NCBI GenBank assembly: GCA_945903465.1
Contig: CAMDOF010000008.1
Coordinates: 1-64,000 of the forward strand
Direction of reading: 5' to 3'
DNA length: 64,000 bases
Origin: Opitutus sp. GAS368
GTDB taxonomy: Bacteria > Verrucomicrobiota > Verrucomicrobiia > Opitutales > Opitutaceae
The notes under the pieces are model-generated. The model had not been told where the DNA came from. It did no database searches and saw only the letters and a program-made list of their open reading frames with translations. Position 1 is the first letter of the stretch. The number at the start of each line of letters is the position of its first letter. Shown piece after piece: positions 30,999 through 41,111 of the stretch. Both the position numbers and the translations under genes were made by a program.

Positions 30999-33197
<2,199 letters not shown>

Positions 33198-33387: not shown

Positions 33388-34701
33388 ATGAGGTTTTTAC
33401 TTGGTTTTATCCTGATTTTTTGCCCGCTTTATGCGGCTGATCCGGCGGTGGGTTCGCTCCCCGAGATATTGGAGCAGAACCGTCTTTTATTGGCCCAGGT
33501 GCGTGCTCAGCAGCAAACCATCAATGAGCTCTCCTCGAAAATGGTGGAGCTGGGGAAGGTGTCGGAGCGTCATGAGCGCGCGTTGGCTACCCGGCCTGAG
33601 CGCGGGGAGGCCGCGACCCCAGCGCCGCGCTCTGCTGGTGGGAATCGCGAGTTGCGCGTCTCAGCCGAGGCGGGCTTCGCTTTTTTTAACACTGGCACCC
33701 TTGGACAATTCCCCAAGGCGGAGTTTCGGGTGGATGACGCCATGTTGACCTTCGAGGCGCCGGTCGTCCGCAACACCTATTTTTTTGCCGACCTCCGCCT
33801 GTTGTCGCGCGAGGCATCGTCGGACCGGCCGGACATCGGGGAACTTTACGTTGATTTTGAGGATGTCTCCGCGAATTGGGGACAACCTGGTTTGATGAGT
33901 CTCCGCGTGGGCCGGCTCAATATTCCGTTTGGCGAGGAGTACTTAGTGCGGAATCCTCTGGACAACCCGCTGATTTCTCACTCGCTCGCCGACTTTTGGG
34001 GGGTGGACGAAGGGGTGGAAATTTACGGGAAAGCGGGGCCCTTTCAGTATGTCTTGGCCCTGCAGAATGGCGGCCATGCGAAGCTGCGCGATTTCAATGC
34101 GGACAAAGCGATCGTGGGTCGCCTCAGTTGGTCGCCCTTGGCTTGGCTCTCTCTCAGTGGAAGTGCCATGCGGACCGGCGAAGTGTCGGCGGCGGCCGGC
34201 ACGGATGTTTATGCTGAGCTGTGGATCGGTAACAACGGATGGTTTAAGGGCGTGGTCGCACCTGTTTTTGCGCGAACCTTTTGGGTTAGTCTTTGGCAGG
34301 CGGAGGCCACGGCGCGTTGGCGGGAGGGGCATCTCGGCATCGCGGTGGGCGCGGCTGATTATGGAGATAACGATCGTCGGGGGGACAACTCGCGGCGCCT
34401 GCGGTTTGGATCGGTCGAAGCGGTTCATTATTTTGACAAACGTATTTTTGGGGCGGCGAGGCAGTCCTGGATTAACGTGCCCAAGGGTTATCCGCTGGCG
34501 GGTTGGGGACCAGCGGCGACTTATTTCAACGGCACGGTTTTGACGTCTGCAATACGGCGCACGAGTGTGGGCATCGGCTACCGCTTCGGACCTCCGCTGG
34601 TGTTGAAGTTTGAATATGCGTGGGAATCACGTCTGACGACGACTTCCGCGCAGCGGGAAAACGGCAACTTGCTTGGTTTGGAACTAGGTCTGAAATTATA
34701 A
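33388..34701 (+). CDS. Outer-membrane porin-like protein with N-terminal coiled coil
   Basis: A 437-residue exported beta-barrel protein. The signal peptide ends near LYAADP (residue about 17). Residues about 25-58 form a short coiled coil (LPEILEQNRLLLAQVRAQQQ, INELSSKMVELGKV), as in trimeric phosphate-selective porins and related OprO/P-like proteins. From about 90, repeated amphipathic strands follow (LRVSAEAGFAFFNTG, LRVGRLNIPFGEEYLV, FQYVLALQNGGHAKLRDFN). The C-terminus LLGLELGLKL has alternating hydrophobic residues. The motif with VGRLNIPFG is common in such porins. It is the first gene of a tight three-gene unit with a copper protein (1 bp gap) and a hybrid kinase. An AT-rich 130-bp leader precedes it, unlike the GC-rich neighbourhood, and may hold the promoter. 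Confidence 0.75.
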   Translation: MRFLLGFILIFCPLYAADPAVGSLPEILEQNRLLLAQVRAQQQTINELSSKMVELGKVSERHERALATRPERGEAATPAPRSAGGNRELRVSAEAGFAFFNTGTLGQFPKAEFRVDDAMLTFEAPVVRNTYFFADLRLLSREASSDRPDIGELYVDFEDVSANWGQPGLMSLRVGRLNIPFGEEYLVRNPLDNPLISHSLADFWGVDEGVEIYGKAGPFQYVLALQNGGHAKLRDFNADKAIVGRLSWSPLAWLSLSGSAMRTGEVSAAAGTDVYAELWIGNNGWFKGVVAPVFARTFWVSLWQAEATARWREGHLGIAVGAADYGDNDRRGDNSRRLRFGSVEAVHYFDKRIFGAARQSWINVPKGYPLAGWGPAATYFNGTVLTSAIRRTSVGIGYRFGPPLVLKFEYAWESRLTTTSAQRENGNLLGLELGLKL

Positions 34702-34702
34702 C

Positions 34703-35398
34703 ATGAAATCGCCCGCACTCTTAAGGTATTTCTTCGTGGCTGCGCTCCTCGGGATCAGTCGGGGGAAGGCAGGGACGATTGCAGGGACAATCCGCGGGGC
34801 GCCTCCCGCGGTGGCCGGAGGCGGGAGCGCCGGAGGCGGTTCTTACGATAGCCGTCGCTACAAATTTGTTGAGAAGTTCGACTATGAAGCGCTGCGTGAC
34901 TTCCTCGTTTATGTCGATGAACCGATGAGTGAATTATTGGCCGCGGGTGCGAAACCTGCGCCCCTCGTGATGTCGCAGAAGGAGGCCAACTTCGAACCAC
35001 GGATGCTCCCGATTGTCGTGGGTTCGACGGTGCGATGGCCGAACGAAGATGAAATCTTTCACAATGTTTTCTCGATGTCGGAGTCCAAGGAGTTCGATCT
35101 TGGTTTCTACAAAAAAGACAAGGTGCCCGAGGTGGTCTTCGACCGCGCCGGGCGGGTGGATGTCTTTTGTGCGATCCATAGCAAGATGCACTGCGTTATC
35201 ATGGTCCTGCCCAATCGTTTCTTCGCCAAGTCGGACGACAAGGGGCGTTTCGTGATTAAAGGTTTGCCGGCGGGGACGTTTAAGGTGCGGGCATGGCATG
35301 AGCGTCTACCGGCGCAGACGCGGTTAATCGAGGTGGCGGCCGAGGGTGAGATGAAAATAGAATTCACCTTGGGCGTGGGCCAAAAAATGGCTCCGTAA
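34703..35398 (+). CDS. Exported cupredoxin-like (methylamine-utilisation-type) copper protein
   Basis: A 231-residue periplasmic protein with a signal peptide (MKSPALLRYFFVAALLGISR). A type-1 copper site is visible: His120 in EDEIFHNVFS, then Cys156, His159 and Met162 in FCAIHSKMH. This is the Cys-x2-His-x2-Met order of small blue copper proteins of the methylamine utilisation protein group. A short carboxypeptidase-regulatory-like beta-domain follows (GRFVIKGLPAGTFKVRAWHE, about 181-200). It starts 1 bp after the porin-like gene and ends 9 bp before the kinase gene, so they form one transcript. Electron transfer, copper binding, or a sensing function as periplasmic partner of the kinase are all plausible. 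Confidence 0.83.
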   Translation: MKSPALLRYFFVAALLGISRGKAGTIAGTIRGAPPAVAGGGSAGGGSYDSRRYKFVEKFDYEALRDFLVYVDEPMSELLAAGAKPAPLVMSQKEANFEPRMLPIVVGSTVRWPNEDEIFHNVFSMSESKEFDLGFYKKDKVPEVVFDRAGRVDVFCAIHSKMHCVIMVLPNRFFAKSDDKGRFVIKGLPAGTFKVRAWHERLPAQTRLIEVAAEGEMKIEFTLGVGQKMAP

Positions 35399-35407
35399 TT
35401 CGCGGCT

Positions 35408-37642
35408 ATGCAAATCAGCGGTCGGCGTTTTAGCCTTCAGACCAAAGTGATGGTCTTGGCGGCGGGAGCGCTCTTGATGGTTCTGACGGCGGTCTTGGTC
35501 TTCGTTGATCGGGAGTTGAAAATGCAGGCGGGCCGTGACGCCGCACAGATGATGGCAATTACCCGGGGAGCGCTCGTGCGCTCGCTCAAAGCGAGTGCGG
35601 ATGAGCTGCGTTGGCGATTGGTGGCGAGTAGCCGTGATCAGCGGTTTTTACGGATCGTGCGTTTGAAAGATGCGCCAACGATCAGAGAGTATTTACGGCA
35701 ATCGATGTTGGAGGAATTGGGTGCTGAGACAGCGGCGGCGGTCTTTATCAGCACGAGTGGCGATACGATTTCGGCACGACCGAGTGGCGGCAGGGGTGCG
35801 CCCGCCGCCTTGGAGACTTTTATCGAATCGCTCGTGATGAAGGCTTTTCAAGGAGAGGAATCGGGCGCCGTAGTCGTCCTGGAGGGCGCGCCCTATCAAG
35901 TGGTAGCGGTGCCCTGCCAACCGCCGGAGGGGATGGCGGGCGTCATCGTGATCGCGGCCAGAGTCAGTGACAGCCGATTGCGGGAGATTTGTCCGCCCGC
36001 CTGCGCGTTGCTTTTAATGGGAGACGGCGCGGTCCTCGCGGCCTCGTTTGCCGGAAGCGGCGAACGTGCAGAAGTGGGGAGTCGATTATTGAATCGAGGT
36101 GTCGATCCGTGGGTGCGTTGGCAGGGGCAGCGCTGGGAGGCGGTCGCCGGCGCCTGGCAGGAGGCGTCGCTGGGGTCGTCCCTGAGATATTTTTTGCTGG
36201 TTTCAGTGGAGGCGAGGCTGAGCGCAGTGGAGAGCAGTCAGCGGGTGCTCTTGGGGGTGGTGATCCTGGCCGGTGTTAGCGCAGGGCTGCTGGCATGGGT
36301 TCTTCTGTCGCGTTTGATTCGGCCGTTGCGCCAGTTGCGCGACGAAGCCGAGGCGGTGGGGCGGGGTGATTTTTCGCGCCGGATTTCCCAGTTTTCGAGG
36401 GACGAGTGTGGAGATCTCGCGCTGGCTTTTAATCAGATGGTCGAGAGTTTGGAAGTTTCCCGCACCGAATTGGATCGAGCGATGACGAAACTGCAATCGG
36501 CGCAAGTGCAACTCGTGCAGGGGGAAAAAATTTCGGCGCTCGGTCAATTTGTGGCCGGTATTGCGACCGAATTATCAATCCCGCTGCGCAACTTGATCGG
36601 CGTTTCCTCTGTAACGTTTGGACGTTTAAACGATGCGGAAAAACAGCTGAAAATTGACGTCATCGCGAAAAGTGCCGAGCGTTGCCGCCTCGTAGTTGAG
36701 AAGCTGCGCGACTTTGCGGCGCCGCCGGCGCACGTGCGCCGTTTACTCAGCGTGGGTAACCTGCTGCGGGATACTTTGAAAGCGTTGGATTGGGAGATGC
36801 GATCCCGACGAGTCTCGGTCCTGCCGATTTTTTCGGCGGAGTTGCCCTTGATTGAGGCGAATGGGAAGCAATTGCAGCAGGCGATTACGAATATTCTGGA
36901 TAATGCTCTCCACGCGCTGGCCGCGGTTGACCGACCACGGAGTATTACCGTGAACGCGATGCGTGGACTTGGGGTCGTGAAGATCGAGATTGAGGATAAC
37001 GGATCAGGCATAATTCCTGAACATCTGCACCGTGTGTTTGAGCCGTTTTTTACCGGCGACCCCGAGAAAAAGCGCTCGGGTCTCGGCTTGAGTGTTTCGC
37101 ACGGCGTGGTGACAGGGCACGGTGGACGGATCGAGGTCAGTAGTGTCCACGGACAAGGGTCAACCTTCACCATTACTTTACCGGTGGCGGCAGGCGATGC
37201 GACCGAGCAGCAAATTGCGCGACAGGAAAACTATTTGGCGATTTTATCTCACGCGGCCCCGCGTGGCGCGCATCGCCGGGTGCTGGTGATTGATGATGAT
37301 CCTTGGATCCGCTCCCAAGCCGAGGAAATCCTGTGCGCGGAGTCCTACCTAGTGATGACGGCGGCGGAACCAGCGGCCGCCCTTGAGCTGATCAAAGAGC
37401 ACAATTTTTCGGTTGTGGTGATCGATCTGCAGATGCCCCAGATGACGGGGTCGGCGCTGTACGAGCAGGCTCGGGTTCTCCGTCCAGATTTGCGGTCCCG
37501 CGTTCTTTTTATGTCTGGTTCAGAGGGACGTGAGCGGTTTCAGGCTTTTCTAGGCGCCAACGGGTTCACGTGCTTGTTCAAGCCGATCGCGAAAGGCGAG
37601 TTCTTGGCCGCAGTCGAGAGGCGGGCGGCGATCGTTCTCTGA
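35408..37642 (+). CDS. Hybrid sensor kinase with non-canonical H-box and receiver domain
   Basis: A 744-residue membrane sensor. TM1 is at about 15-33 and a periplasmic domain of the dCache/sCache kind spans about 35-278. TM2 (280-300) leads into HAMP (about 300-352) and a short coiled coil. The dimerisation segment is EKISALGQFVAGIATELSIP, where canonical kinases have His in AHE; here the position is Thr387, and the usual NNPL is SIPL. The ATPase domain is intact in its motifs: N-box QAITNILDNALHAL, G1 IEDNGSGI and G2 SGLGLSVSHGVV. A receiver domain at about 622-744 has Asp630/631, phospho-acceptor Asp673 in VIDLQMPQMTG and Lys725. It is likely a pseudokinase or uses an unusual acceptor. Last gene of the porin-cupredoxin unit. 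Confidence 0.9.
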   Translation: MQISGRRFSLQTKVMVLAAGALLMVLTAVLVFVDRELKMQAGRDAAQMMAITRGALVRSLKASADELRWRLVASSRDQRFLRIVRLKDAPTIREYLRQSMLEELGAETAAAVFISTSGDTISARPSGGRGAPAALETFIESLVMKAFQGEESGAVVVLEGAPYQVVAVPCQPPEGMAGVIVIAARVSDSRLREICPPACALLLMGDGAVLAASFAGSGERAEVGSRLLNRGVDPWVRWQGQRWEAVAGAWQEASLGSSLRYFLLVSVEARLSAVESSQRVLLGVVILAGVSAGLLAWVLLSRLIRPLRQLRDEAEAVGRGDFSRRISQFSRDECGDLALAFNQMVESLEVSRTELDRAMTKLQSAQVQLVQGEKISALGQFVAGIATELSIPLRNLIGVSSVTFGRLNDAEKQLKIDVIAKSAERCRLVVEKLRDFAAPPAHVRRLLSVGNLLRDTLKALDWEMRSRRVSVLPIFSAELPLIEANGKQLQQAITNILDNALHALAAVDRPRSITVNAMRGLGVVKIEIEDNGSGIIPEHLHRVFEPFFTGDPEKKRSGLGLSVSHGVVTGHGGRIEVSSVHGQGSTFTITLPVAAGDATEQQIARQENYLAILSHAAPRGAHRRVLVIDDDPWIRSQAEEILCAESYLVMTAAEPAAALELIKEHNFSVVVIDLQMPQMTGSALYEQARVLRPDLRSRVLFMSGSEGRERFQAFLGANGFTCLFKPIAKGEFLAAVERRAAIVL

Positions 37643-37779: not shown

Positions 37780-40179
37780 TTAATAGATAATCGCGCTCCG
37801 GCGCCTGAGCTCGAATTGGCCAAGGCCAGGGGCCCAGCGTGCCTTAATTTGTGCGAGAGATTCTCCGACCTTGAGGGCTTGCAGGGTCTCGTCGTCACCG
37901 AGCAGTCGGCGCATGTCGTCTACCTTGAATTGATCCGGGTAGAGGCGTTGCATGGCGAGAGCGAGTTCGATGCCAAGGTCAATGACAGGGCACTGGTCGC
38001 GATCGGTTAGGACGGCCCGGATGCCACCGCAGGTTTGATCCTTGTACTTGAGGGTTGCGGCGGGCCCGGGATAAAAATCCATCTTGGGTGTAAATTTTAC
38101 CGGCTCGAAACGCACCCCCGCGAGGTGGCGCGCGTTCATCTCAGCCGCGAGTTTTGACCCGTCGATGTAGGGTGCGCCCACTTGCTCGAACGGTTTGGCG
38201 GTTCCTCGCCCCATCGAGACCGAAGTGCTCTCGAGCAAACAAAAACCCGGATACAGTGTCGCCGCGGTCAGGCTGCGCATCGAAGGTGACGGGTTGGTCC
38301 ACGGCAGTCCGGTCTCGTCAAGCCAGCGATCGCGCGACCAGTTTTCACAGCGGATGACGGCCAAGTCGGCGCCGAACTTACGCTCGCGATTGAAGAGTTG
38401 GGCGAGTTCACCGAGGGTCAGGCCGTGCCGTACCGGCAAGGGGTGGAATCCGATAAAGCTCGGGGGGCGTGTCTGGATGGGGCCCTCGTAGCGGGTACCG
38501 GTGATGGGGTTTATCCGGTCGAGCACGAAAATTTTCTTCTTCGCTTGGGCGGCGGCTTCGAGAGCCGCGCCGAGCGTGGCTGAGTAGGTGTAGAAACGTG
38601 CGCCGATATCTTGAATGTCGAAGACGAGCGCGTCGAGGTCGCGCAGGTGTTCCGCCTTGGGCGCGCGGGCGCGGATCACGGCTTGATCGTATTCAGCGGC
38701 GGAGGCACCGGGGATGCGCGGGGGACTCTCGCCGTAAAGGCTGTAGATCGGGAGTTTCGTTTTTTCGTCCACCGTATCGCCGACTTTTTCGTCGGCGGTC
38801 CCGCGGATACCATGTTCGGGACTGAAGAGGGCGACAAGTTTCACGTCTTTGGCGCCATGGAGGAGGTCGATGGTGGGCCGGCCTTGGCGGTCGCGACCGC
38901 TGTGATTGGTGATGAGGCCGATTCTTAATCCCCGCAGTTGAGCAAAATCCTCGCGGACTAAAACATCGATGCCGTTCAGGACTGCACCGACGTCGCGGCC
39001 CATGGCCTCAGCGGCGAGCGTGGCGATTTCGCGGCGCAGGGCGGTGGCGTCGCCCTTACCATCAGGATAAACGCGATTGCAGAAAAAAAGGACGAAGGTT
39101 TTTGCGGCGGGATCGATCCAGACACTCGTACCGGTCCAGCCGGTGTGACCGAAGCTGCGGCCCGCGGGAAACCATCGGCCGCGTGGTCCGGAGTAGCTGG
39201 TGTCGATGTCCCAGCCGAGCCCGCGGCGGTTGGGGCCCTCGGTCTGTACGCGGGTCATCTCGGTGATGCTGGTGGCACGCAAGATGCGCGTACCGTCAAG
39301 CTCGCCCCCGTTAATCAGCATGCGGCAGAAGCGGGCGAGATCGCTTGTGGTGGTAAAAAGTCCGGCATGGCCAGCGACACCGCCCATGCGTCGCGCGGTG
39401 GGGTCGTGCACCACCCCGTGGATCATTTTCCCGTCGACAAGTTCGGTCGGAGCAATGCGGGCAAGTTTCGCGGCGGCCGGGAGGAATCCGGTGTCGGTCA
39501 TGCGCAGGGGTGTGAAGATATGTTGCTGGGTATAGGCGTCGAGGCGTTGGCCGCTGGCGAGGCGCACGACCTCCCCGAGGATGATGTAGTTGATATCGCT
39601 ATACACGAAGTTGCTGCCGGGGGCGGTTCGCAGTTCCTCCTGGCAGGCGCGCGTAATCGCGGCGTCGACGCCAGACCACGCGGGGGTAGCCGGCAGGCTG
39701 GGCCGGACTCCTGAATGGTGCGTCATCAAGTGGCGCAGAGTGATGCTGCCCTTGCCGTGTTGGGCGAAGGCGGGGAGATAGCGGGCGACGGGGCCATCAA
39801 GTTCGAGCTTTCCCGCTTCGACGAGTTGCATCACCGCGGTGGTCGTGGCGATGACCTTGGTGAGGGACGCGGCGTCGTAGAGCGTATCCTCAGTGGTGGC
39901 CTCGGGTGCTGGGGTGAGGGTGCGGTGGCCGTAGGCTTTCCGGTAGGTGGTGCCGGCACGCTCCACCCAAAGGACCCCACCGGGCATTTTCTTCGCGGCG
40001 ATGGCTTGGTCCACGGCGTTATCGATGGCGGCAAGTTTATCCGGAAGAAAAGCCGGTGCCGCGGCCGAGGTGGGCTTGGCGCTGATTTTTGCCCCTTCAG
40101 GGTGGGGCGTCCCGCAGCCCGACCAGCAAAGTGCGGCGGCGCTGACCGTGAGCAAGACCGTAATCGAGGGAGTTTTCAC
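37780..40179 (-). CDS. Serine beta-lactamase-like / NamZ (DUF1343) exo-muramidase fusion lipoprotein
   Basis: Two enzymes in one 799-residue exported chain. A GTG start at 40179 is chosen because it opens onto a lipoprotein signal (VKTPSITVLLTVSAAALCWS, Cys22) and lies 11 bp after the upstream gene. A longer frame from 40281 overlaps that gene. Residues about 45-395 are a class-C-like serine hydrolase: nucleophile Ser105 and Lys108 in SLTK, YSD at 193-195, and HTG at 345-347. From about 400, NamZ/DUF1343 follows (LRGLRIGLITNHSG, VALFSPEHGIRG, LVFDIQDIGARFYTYS). NamZ removes terminal N-acetylmuramic acid from peptidoglycan fragments. The serine-hydrolase half may act on peptide or sugar esters. 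The fusion suggests stepwise periplasmic cell-wall processing. Confidence 0.92.
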   Translation of the reverse strand: MKTPSITVLLTVSAAALCWSGCGTPHPEGAKISAKPTSAAAPAFLPDKLAAIDNAVDQAIAAKKMPGGVLWVERAGTTYRKAYGHRTLTPAPEATTEDTLYDAASLTKVIATTTAVMQLVEAGKLELDGPVARYLPAFAQHGKGSITLRHLMTHHSGVRPSLPATPAWSGVDAAITRACQEELRTAPGSNFVYSDINYIILGEVVRLASGQRLDAYTQQHIFTPLRMTDTGFLPAAAKLARIAPTELVDGKMIHGVVHDPTARRMGGVAGHAGLFTTTSDLARFCRMLINGGELDGTRILRATSITEMTRVQTEGPNRRGLGWDIDTSYSGPRGRWFPAGRSFGHTGWTGTSVWIDPAAKTFVLFFCNRVYPDGKGDATALRREIATLAAEAMGRDVGAVLNGIDVLVREDFAQLRGLRIGLITNHSGRDRQGRPTIDLLHGAKDVKLVALFSPEHGIRGTADEKVGDTVDEKTKLPIYSLYGESPPRIPGASAAEYDQAVIRARAPKAEHLRDLDALVFDIQDIGARFYTYSATLGAALEAAAQAKKKIFVLDRINPITGTRYEGPIQTRPPSFIGFHPLPVRHGLTLGELAQLFNRERKFGADLAVIRCENWSRDRWLDETGLPWTNPSPSMRSLTAATLYPGFCLLESTSVSMGRGTAKPFEQVGAPYIDGSKLAAEMNARHLAGVRFEPVKFTPKMDFYPGPAATLKYKDQTCGGIRAVLTDRDQCPVIDLGIELALAMQRLYPDQFKVDDMRRLLGDDETLQALKVGESLAQIKARWAPGLGQFELRRRSAIIY

Positions 40180-40190
40180 GGAGAGTATGT

Positions 40191-41111
40191 TCACACGTTG
40201 GCGAGTATTTTTTCGAGGAAGAGGCGATTGGCCCGGGCATTTTCCATCGTCTCTTGTGGAGTTGGGCCGATCTTGCAGCACTCGACCATGATCGGTCCGC
40301 TAAAGCCGGCGGATTTTAATCGCTTAAAAACGCCAGCAAAGTCGACCTTGCCTTCACCGAATGAGATCATCACATCGCTCTTGGCCGCGGCGCAGTCTTT
40401 CGCGCAAAACCCGGTGACGTGCTCAGCGATGGGTGCGAGTTCGGCGACAGGATCCTTGCCCGTGTAGTAGATAATATTTCCTGCATCGTACCACACCTTA
40501 AAATTGGGGTGGCCGACGGCTTTCATCGCGGTGACCATCTCCTCGGAGGAGCCGCTCCCACCGCCGTGGGGTTTCATGACCAGCTTGATCTTGCGCTCGG
40601 CCGCGAACGCGGCGGCGTCAGCCATGACCTTAAAGTATTGCGCGTAGTGGGCGGGTTTATCGACGCCGAAGGTGAGCGCGGATTCGACGCCCAACGTGTG
40701 CGCGTTGACAATTTGCTGGCGGGTATCGGCGATGGCCTCCGCCAGCGGCACACCATTTTTCACGCGGAGTGCCGTCATATTTACGGTGAGACCGCGGGCG
40801 GCGATTTTTCGTTTGAGGGCGTTGAGATATTCGGGCGTGGCGCCGGCGCTGGTGAAGATGTCCCCCTTGGCCACGACTGGGCTGAGCAGTCCGGTGGTCG
40901 TATAGCCGGCGCCCTTAATCGCATCGAGTGTCTCGTCGTAGCTCCATTTGGTCCACGGCCGGTTGAAGCAGCCGATCGTCCAGCGAGAGGCGGGCCCGGC
41001 GGGGGCTTTTTTTTCAGCGCCGAAGGTGCGGTCCGGGAGGAGTGCGGTGGCCAGCAAGCCGGAGGCGGTCGTGGTCAGAAATTGGCGGCGATTAATCGGG
41101 TTGGTCGGCAT
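40191..41111 (-). CDS. Tat-exported sugar phosphate isomerase/epimerase-like TIM barrel protein
   Basis: A 306-residue xylose-isomerase-like TIM barrel with a twin-arginine signal (NRRQFLTTTASGLLATALLP), so it is exported folded. Core elements are TIGCFNRPWTKWSYDETLDA, LLSPVVAKGDIF, VMKPHGGGSGSSEE, VWYDAGNII and MVECCKIGPTPQETM, in family order. Candidate metal ligands are the His of KPHGG, the Asp of YDAGN, the Asp/His pair and the Glu of MVECC. Such proteins are abundant in Planctomycetes and Verrucomicrobia and are thought to act on sugars or inositols; the exact reaction is not known. It is the first gene of a two-gene operon with the NamZ fusion, so a role in using muramic or amino sugars is conceivable. 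Confidence 0.85.
   Translation of the reverse strand: MPTNPINRRQFLTTTASGLLATALLPDRTFGAEKKAPAGPASRWTIGCFNRPWTKWSYDETLDAIKGAGYTTTGLLSPVVAKGDIFTSAGATPEYLNALKRKIAARGLTVNMTALRVKNGVPLAEAIADTRQQIVNAHTLGVESALTFGVDKPAHYAQYFKVMADAAAFAAERKIKLVMKPHGGGSGSSEEMVTAMKAVGHPNFKVWYDAGNIIYYTGKDPVAELAPIAEHVTGFCAKDCAAAKSDVMISFGEGKVDFAGVFKRLKSAGFSGPIMVECCKIGPTPQETMENARANRLFLEKILANV

What the first reader, a model, noticed from the sequence alone, without database searches (positions are those of the whole stretch)
33388..37642. Porin, copper protein and histidine-less hybrid kinase in one compact operon
Three genes with gaps of 1 and 9 bp encode a porin-like barrel, a type-1 copper protein (His120, Cys156, His159, Met162) and a membrane hybrid kinase. 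The kinase segment that should read AHE reads ATE, so Thr387 replaces the phospho-accepting histidine, and the following NNPL is SIPL. ATPase motifs and the receiver Asp673 are intact. The kinase may not autophosphorylate by the normal route. A copper- or redox-linked system in which the kinase acts as a phosphatase, scaffold or non-canonical kinase is a real possibility.
Basis: partly seen in the sequence, partly recalled or inferred. Interest (0 to 1): 0.72.

Follow-up and report, generated by a model that had tools for sequence, protein, structure and literature searches.

The report
Copper-linked operon with dead kinase
In this bacterium a conserved three-gene envelope operon (outer-membrane pore, copper-binding protein, membrane sensor kinase) carries a kinase that has lost the histidine every compared relative keeps, so it probably signals without normal phosphorylation.

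Summary
A porin-like protein, an amicyanin-like copper protein and a hybrid kinase lie in one tight operon, and the kinase has Thr387 where the phospho-accepting His should be.

The three genes are a real unit: 39 of 44 fetched family loci carry all three; the other 5 lie at contig ends.

Thr is unique. All 53 compared kinases of this family have His. It is not one slip: the codon differs by at least two bases, and 17 of 38 conserved DHp positions changed. The Pfam HisKA score fell to 26.3 bits (below cut-off) against 58-73 in 11 relatives; HAMP is normal, ATPase and receiver only just below the relatives' range. Terminal branch ratios rise from about 2x (ligA, pore, copper protein) to 21x (kinase core).

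The phosphatase Asn at +4 is also lost (N391I; PMC3510030), against a phosphatase role. Best reading: a lineage-specific pseudo-histidine kinase in an otherwise conserved system.

Beyond the window, related copper proteins sit beside kinases or class III cyclases in 39 of 56 loci; seven literature searches showed no description of this module.

The parts
33388..34701 (+). outer-membrane porin-like protein (437 aa); barrel inferred
   Evidence: (sub-threshold Porin_O_P); 2 of 54 conserved positions depart
34703..35398 (+). amicyanin-like cupredoxin, presumed periplasmic, with C-terminal CarboxypepD_reg-like domain (231 aa)
   Evidence: family profile matches amicyanin and CuNIR chains in PDB
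35060..35062 (+). codon of copper ligand His120
   Evidence: invariant in 37 of 37 relatives
35168..35188 (+). C156-x2-H159-x2-M162, the type-1 copper ligand loop
   Evidence: invariant in 37 of 37 relatives
35408..37642 (+). membrane hybrid kinase homologue (744 aa): sensor, HAMP, DHp, ATPase, receiver
35429..36301 (+). residues 8-298: presumed TM1, periplasmic sensor (dCache_3 in some orthologues) and TM2
   Evidence: dCache_3 above gathering score in 3 (L045, L046, L192) of 12 relatives scanned; no dCache match for the window protein itself
36302..36454 (+). HAMP domain (residues 299-349)
   Evidence: 0 of 20 conserved positions of the TM2+HAMP segment depart
36539..36718 (+). HisKA/DHp domain (residues 378-437), degenerate
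   Evidence: 26.3 bits, below the 26.9 cut-off, against 58.5-73.0 in 11 orthologues; 17 of 38 conserved positions of the segment 373-440 depart
36566..36568 (+). codon ACC, Thr387, in place of the phospho-accepting His (CAC 30, CAT 6 in 36 orthologues)
36578..36580 (+). codon ATC, Ile391, in place of the +4 Asn needed for HisKA phosphatase activity
   Evidence: role of the +4 residue from PMC3510030
36863..37189 (+). HATPase_c domain (residues 486-594); N499 and D530 kept, first Gly of G2 changed (G556R)
37280..37615 (+). receiver domain (residues 625-736) with D629, D630, D673, S703, K725
31026..33197 (+). ligA-like neighbour (name recalled from the sequence, no family search), not part of the operon, anchors synteny
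   Evidence: has a homologue in 16 of the 49 loci examined

Best explanation
The operon is a conserved envelope-sensing unit of this bacterial family. An outer-membrane pore protein, a periplasmic type-1 copper protein and an inner-membrane dCache-HAMP hybrid kinase normally feed a His-to-Asp relay. In this one lineage the kinase's phosphotransfer helix has been disabled: the acceptor His and the phosphatase Asn are both lost. The HAMP domain, the ATP-binding domain and the receiver have been kept in an open frame. It is most likely a derived pseudo-histidine kinase. The copper or redox state read by the cupredoxin and the sensor (inferred) still changes the HAMP/DHp conformation (inferred), but the output is by binding or by its receiver domain, for example sequestering a response regulator or partner kinase, or being phosphorylated from elsewhere (inferred), rather than by autophosphorylation (loss inferred from residues). 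Shown here: gene order and synteny, Thr found in the window alone among 54 kinases compared, loss of two catalytic DHp residues, near-normal profiles of the other domains, and an acceleration of the kinase that peaks in its core.
For: Thr387 and Ile391. His in 53 of 53 other kinases compared (44 family loci, with L114 read; 7 class loci; L047 and L048). Pfam bits, window versus 11 orthologues: HisKA 26.3 vs 58.5-73.0; HATPase 84.8 vs 88.6-101.4; receiver 68.3 vs 69.1-83.5; HAMP 52.2 vs 46.3-62.7. Departures at positions at least 95% conserved: TM2+HAMP 0 of 20, DHp segment 17 of 38, the following linker 4 of 6, CA 17 of 50, receiver 12 of 32. On the same 16 taxa the window's terminal branch over the mean of the others is: ligA 1.9, copper protein 2.2, pore 2.6, kinase N-half 4.3, receiver 10, core 21. 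Neutral decay to 45% identity left a stop-free core in 1 of 300 simulations, to 50% in 2 of 300, to 60% in 6 of 300. Role of E+1 (kinase only) and N+4 (phosphatase only): PMC3510030, abstract and passages. Precedent: DivL, a Tyr pseudo-kinase reported to lack kinase and phosphatase activity (PMC4211667, passages).
Against: Only one genome shows it, and no close relative shares the state, so selection for a new role cannot be measured (no usable dN/dS). HATPase and receiver scores, though near normal, are each just below the lowest of the 11 orthologues, and both domains depart at many family-specific positions, including G556R in the G2 box, so ATP binding may be weakened and relaxation of the whole output half is not excluded. 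The kinase N-half is accelerated too (4.3x), and the sensor has only one position conserved enough to test. The window's whole lineage is somewhat fast: root-to-tip distances of pore (1.24, maximum of others 0.93) and copper protein (1.55, maximum 1.23) exceed all others. No partner protein was identified. E388, the residue needed for kinase chemistry, is still present.
Confidence: 0.6

Rival explanations
1. The kinase is being lost: after the relay stopped mattering in this lineage the output half drifts under weak constraint, and the gene has no present function beyond what the sensor half may do.
For: Whole output half accelerated (core 21x, receiver 10x, N-half 4.3x). Many family-invariant positions changed. 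HATPase and receiver scores just below the orthologues' range. The system is patchy: 47 of 252 family genomes, many of them incomplete, match the kinase N-half at E<=1e-25.
Against: Open frame over 744 codons. Only 1 of 300 (45% identity) or 6 of 300 (60%) neutral simulations stay stop-free in the core. HATPase and receiver profiles fall by a few bits while HisKA falls by over 30. Pore and copper protein have terminal branches about twice the mean, like ligA, and all four copper ligands are kept.
Confidence: 0.27
2. A non-canonical kinase: Thr387 (or another residue) is phosphorylated, or the ATPase domain phosphorylates something else directly.
For: E388, N499, D530 and the receiver Asp673 are kept.
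Against: Thr was seen in none of the 53 other kinases compared; the neighbouring positions and a G2 glycine have also changed; no family of Thr-accepting HisKA kinases is known to me (recalled).
Confidence: 0.07
3. The core came from another kinase by recombination.
For: Contrast between the HAMP segment and the output half.
Against: The 12 best matches to the core after the window itself, in 384 class genomes, are kinases of this same family (best 44%, G373), ahead of other kinases; blocks such as GQFVAG and IAKSA-RC are shared with them.
Confidence: 0.04
4. Sequencing or assembly artefact.
For: The genome is a draft of 343 contigs, 93% complete; reads were not available.
Against: His-to-Thr needs at least two base changes (ACC against CAC or CAT); dozens of in-frame replacements; ligA synteny intact.
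Confidence: 0.02

Closest known systems
DivL (Caulobacter crescentus pseudo-histidine kinase)
   Same: Acceptor His replaced, DHp-CA architecture kept; reported to lack kinase and phosphatase activity and to work by protein binding (PMC4211667, passages).
   Different: DivL's Tyr is conserved in its alphaproteobacterial homologues, with one Ala exception (same passages), and it has PAS sensors; here Thr was seen in one lineage only, the sensor is dCache-like, and a receiver is attached. No sequence comparison with DivL was made.
ChrS pseudokinase of Corynebacterium glutamicum
   Same: A pseudokinase version of a histidine kinase in heme tolerance (PMC9491836, title and abstract start in a search listing only).
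   Different: Not compared by sequence.
EspC/EspA and CckA type hybrid kinases
   Same: Among the best NCBIfam matches of the kinase core; similar DHp-CA-receiver layout.
   Different: Far below those families' cut-offs (EspC 208 of 1200 bits); the EspC match covers residues 356-738 only.
Amicyanin and other cupredoxins
   Same: C-x2-H-x2-M ligand loop plus upstream His; family profile matches amicyanin and CuNIR chains in PDB.
   Different: Extra C-terminal CarboxypepD_reg-like domain (sub-threshold); below the amicyanin equivalog cut-off (24.5 of 110.2 bits); genetically tied to a sensor kinase.

Membership tests
HisKA histidine kinases | phospho-accepting His in the H-box | tested here: not met
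   Thr387, ACC
HisKA histidine kinases | HisKA profile above gathering score | tested here: not met
   26.3 bits against 26.9
HisKA histidine kinases | H-E/D-x-x-T/N: acidic +1 and T/N +4 | tested here: not met
   E388 kept, +4 is Ile391 (motif from PMC3510030)
HisKA histidine kinases | HATPase_c domain | tested here: met
   84.8 bits; N499 and D530 kept, G556R changed
receiver domain | phospho-accepting Asp with acidic pair, Ser/Thr and Lys | tested here: met
   D629, D630, D673, S703, K725; 68.3 bits; the residue set is recalled
pseudo-histidine kinase (functional class of DivL) | acceptor His replaced while fold domains are kept | tested here: met
pseudo-histidine kinase (functional class of DivL) | no autokinase activity; signals by binding | not testable with these tools
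   needs a biochemical assay
pseudo-histidine kinase (functional class of DivL) | replacement conserved in orthologues | tested here: not met
   seen in the window alone among 54 kinases
type-1 cupredoxin | His, Cys, His, Met ligand set | tested here: met
   H120, C156, H159, M162; invariant in 37 of 37 relatives
type-1 cupredoxin | Pfam Copper-bind profile above gathering score | tested here: not met
   16.2 bits against 21.2; a profile of the family does match amicyanin chains in PDB
type-1 cupredoxin | copper bound, blue spectrum | not testable with these tools
   needs purified protein; the single-sequence model was too poor to use (pLDDT 34)
Porin_O_P | Pfam profile above gathering score | tested here: not met
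   15 bits against 20.9; PDB profile search gave weak matches only, best OmpG at E 0.02

The most novel reading that the evidence does not exclude
The operon belongs to a wider, apparently undescribed envelope signalling module: an outer-membrane barrel and a periplasmic cupredoxin coupled to a membrane transducer whose output is interchangeable (hybrid kinase, OmpR-type kinase pair, or class III nucleotide cyclase). In the window's lineage the kinase output has been converted to a phosphorylation-independent one.
Probability: 0.4. Interest if true: 0.68.

Novelty: new variant of a known kind. Interest (0 to 1): 0.45.

Why it matters
It is a natural before-and-after experiment: one syntenic gene with dozens of His-bearing orthologues and one lineage in which the acceptor His and the phosphatase Asn are gone while the HAMP, ATPase and receiver domains survive. 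That makes how a sensor kinase becomes a pseudokinase testable. It also points to a recurrent cupredoxin-linked signalling operon whose signal is unknown.

Tried and rejected
Domain swap of the kinase core: rejected, because the core's 12 best matches are kinases of the same family. Phosphatase role: disfavoured by N391I. Conserved Thr: rejected. An intact second copy of the same kinase in the same genome: none found; the next-best hit is 29% identical over residues 330-736 only. Closer relatives with Thr in the GTDB r220 contigs: the single scan, built on six short peptide patterns and possibly leaving out records near the window's genome, returned only distant kinases (57 loci, 22-47% over parts). 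Sensor fold by profile against PDB: nothing significant; dCache_3 came instead from Pfam hits of some orthologues. Structure prediction: two single-sequence jobs gave unusable models (pLDDT 34 and 43), so no fold search was run. I did not give fetch from genomes orthologues to structure prediction, because its description names other sources of loci.

Literature. Seven searches bear on the operon or module, three on HisKA chemistry and pseudokinases. None of the titles and abstract starts listed describes the module; some listings were capped (12 of 19), subscription papers are not held, and of all listed papers I opened only two. Leads seen in listings and not read: PMC3707914 (CorSR, copper tolerance in Myxococcus), PMC10141476 (copper-associated signalling in marine bacteria), PMC12889525 (Cache-type sensor with c-type heme).

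Limits of the counts. The kinase set used for conservation was selected by a pattern that contains the His block, so it cannot itself show that His is universal; that claim rests on the listings, and G390 and G391 were not fetched. The profiles were trained on some of the loci they then labelled, and the barrel profile rests on proteins of which the two scanned had no Pfam family, so 'barrel' there is inferred. The core's branch of 4.3-4.4 substitutions per site is model-dependent; ratios to control genes are safer, though tip-branch ratios can be inflated where close neighbours are missing. The neutral simulation starts from one orthologue's core (L083) and ignores constrained divergence, so the 60% figure (6 of 300) is the fairer bound. 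Core and receiver placements on their trees are poorly supported.
Full report
What is there. The window carries three + strand ORFs separated by 1 and 9 bp: 33388-34701 (437 aa, porin-like), 34703-35398 (231 aa, cupredoxin) and 35408-37642 (744 aa, kinase). Pfam gives for the kinase HAMP 299-349, HisKA 378-437 (26.3 bits, just under its cut-off of 26.9), HATPase_c 486-594 and receiver 625-736. For the middle protein it gives sub-threshold Copper-bind and CarboxypepD_reg matches, and for the first a sub-threshold Porin_O_P match. The kinase reads G-I-A-T387-E-L-S-I391-P-L. The codon is ACC, against CAC (30) or CAT (6) in 36 orthologues, so at least two base changes separate them.

Is the operon conserved? 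Of 252 genomes of the family searched with the kinase's N-terminal half, 47 including the window match at E<=1e-25. I fetched 44 of the 46 others (40, four; G390 and G391 were left out). In 39 of these 44 loci porin, copper protein and kinase are all present. The other five (L092, L094, L113, L114, L116) are cut by a contig end, or lie within about 200 bases of one, on the side where the missing genes would be. In L090 the porin is in pieces. The ligA-like gene directly upstream in the window has homologues in 16 of the 49 loci examined, so the window locus is the syntenic orthologue. In trees of pore and copper protein the window groups with same-genus loci (L084 with L085, support 98; L084 with L086, support 99). 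The three-gene unit also occurs outside the order: 6 of the 12 class loci fetched carry all three (L190-L193, L195, L197).

Is Thr conserved? No. In the 44 family loci the H-box is AHELNNPL in 37 (in L114 the kinase ORF is split and the block was read from the DNA) and an SHExRTP form in 7 longer kinases that share the N-terminal half. Seven class loci (L190-L195, L197) have AHELNNPL (L194 has no pore or copper protein found beside it), and L047 and L048 have SHEIRTPM. That is His in 53 of 53; the window alone has Thr. Twelve kinases of a related copper-protein locus type and three more with HDFNN boxes (L246, L247, L250) also have His.

But it is not a lone point mutation. Against 36 orthologues the window departs from positions at least 95% conserved at 0 of 20 in TM2+HAMP, 17 of 38 in the DHp segment, 4 of 6 in the following linker, 17 of 50 in CA and 12 of 32 in the receiver, while any other sequence departs at 12% at most in HAMP, DHp, CA and receiver (this set was chosen by a pattern holding the His block; the sensor has only one such position, so this test says nothing about it). 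General Pfam profiles show what was lost: HisKA 26.3 bits against 58.5-73.0 in 11 orthologues, while HATPase_c is 84.8 against 88.6-101.4, receiver 68.3 against 69.1-83.5, and HAMP 52.2 against 46.3-62.7. HATPase and receiver thus lie just below the orthologues' range, HisKA far below it. With the same 16 taxa, the window's terminal branch relative to the mean of the others is 1.9 for ligA, 2.2 for the copper protein, 2.6 for the pore, 4.3 for the kinase N-half, 10 for the receiver and 21 for the core (larger sets). The whole lineage is somewhat fast: for pore and copper protein the window's root-to-tip distance also exceeds that of every other member (1.24 against a maximum of 0.93; 1.55 against 1.23). 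The core was not imported: its 12 best matches in 384 class genomes, after the window itself, are kinases of this family. On the core and receiver trees the window's placement is poorly supported.

Function retained or decay? The frame is open throughout. Randomly mutating an orthologous core until it reached 45% identity left it stop-free in 1 of 300 runs, at 50% in 2 of 300 and at 60% in 6 of 300. Full neutrality is therefore unlikely, though a shorter or partial relaxation is not excluded. The pore and copper protein keep most conserved positions (2 of 54 and 6 of 58 depart) and all four copper ligands, so the rest of the operon looks alive.

Which activities are gone? In the HisKA kinases tested in PMC3510030 (abstract and passages) the acidic residue after His is needed only for kinase activity and the Thr/Asn at +4 only for phosphatase activity. 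The window keeps E388 but has Ile391 at +4. So both autokinase (no His) and phosphatase (no Asn) are predicted lost, and the suggestion that the kinase acts as a phosphatase is disfavoured. The closest working model is DivL, where a kinase with Tyr for His is reported to have neither kinase nor phosphatase activity and to act by binding a phosphorylated regulator (PMC4211667, passages). A pseudokinase form of ChrS in heme tolerance is another (PMC9491836, title and abstract start in a listing). Inferred mechanism: copper or redox state, read by the cupredoxin and the sensor, alters the HAMP/DHp coiled coil; the ATPase and receiver domains then bind or release a partner, or the receiver is phosphorylated from elsewhere.

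The signal. The copper protein's family profile matches amicyanin and nitrite-reductase chains in the PDB, with ligands H120, C156, H159 and M162. The sensor is dCache_3-like in 3 of 12 relatives scanned (L045, L046, L192 above cut-off). One relative (L048) fuses a cytochrome c'-like segment with a CxxCH motif to the cupredoxin (Cytochrom_C_2 E 2.4e-4, below cut-off), which hints at electron transfer or redox sensing rather than copper counting. That is a lead only.

A wider module. Among 56 cupredoxin loci taken from the order and phylum searches (not all places found there were fetched), 17 have a kinase beside the copper protein (12 of them with a response regulator and a barrel-like protein close by; in L048 the kinase comes), 22 have a class III nucleotide cyclase (6 with a barrel-like match), 3 have a barrel-like protein only, and 14 have none of these adjacent (one of them, L265, has a kinase about 3 kb away). 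Pfam confirmed the cyclase domain in the 6 cyclase proteins scanned and the kinase domains in the 2 kinases scanned, and found no family in the 2 barrel-like proteins scanned, so the barrel label is inferred. The window's own genome holds two such loci: regulator-cupredoxin-kinase-barrel (L056) and cupredoxin-cyclase (L057). So the copper protein and a membrane transducer recur together while the output enzyme varies. Seven literature searches returned no description of it in what was listed.

Verdict. The His-less state is a derived, lineage-specific pseudokinase conversion of an otherwise conserved copper-protein-linked sensor operon.

Noticed in passing
window 37780-40281 (-): Downstream convergent gene fuses a beta-lactamase-family domain to an exo-beta-N-acetylmuramidase (NamZ_N and NamZ_C), 833 aa; it may be a peptidoglycan-recycling enzyme.
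   Followed up: partly
L056 1812-6218 (same genome, contig C135): OmpR-like regulator, cupredoxin, kinase with intact ADASHQLKTP box and barrel-like protein in a row with overlapping ends: a second cupredoxin signalling locus.
   Followed up: partly
L057 4444-7859 (same genome, contig C128): Barrel-like ORF (by eye), cupredoxin, HAMP plus class III nucleotide cyclase: a third cupredoxin signalling locus, with a cyclic-nucleotide output.
   Followed up: partly
L048 1505-2557 (-): Cupredoxin with an N-terminal cytochrome c'-like segment and CxxCH motif, beside a porin and a kinase.
   Followed up: partly
L047 4767-6119 (+): In-frame join of the first ~300 residues of the porin to the cupredoxin from its copper-binding part; a real fusion or a deletion, not resolved.
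   Followed up: partly
L115, L117-L122: Same N-terminal half, pore and copper protein but a longer kinase (1001-1071 aa) with an SHExRTP H-box (in L115 also PAS): the kinase core seems to have been exchanged within the family.
   Followed up: partly
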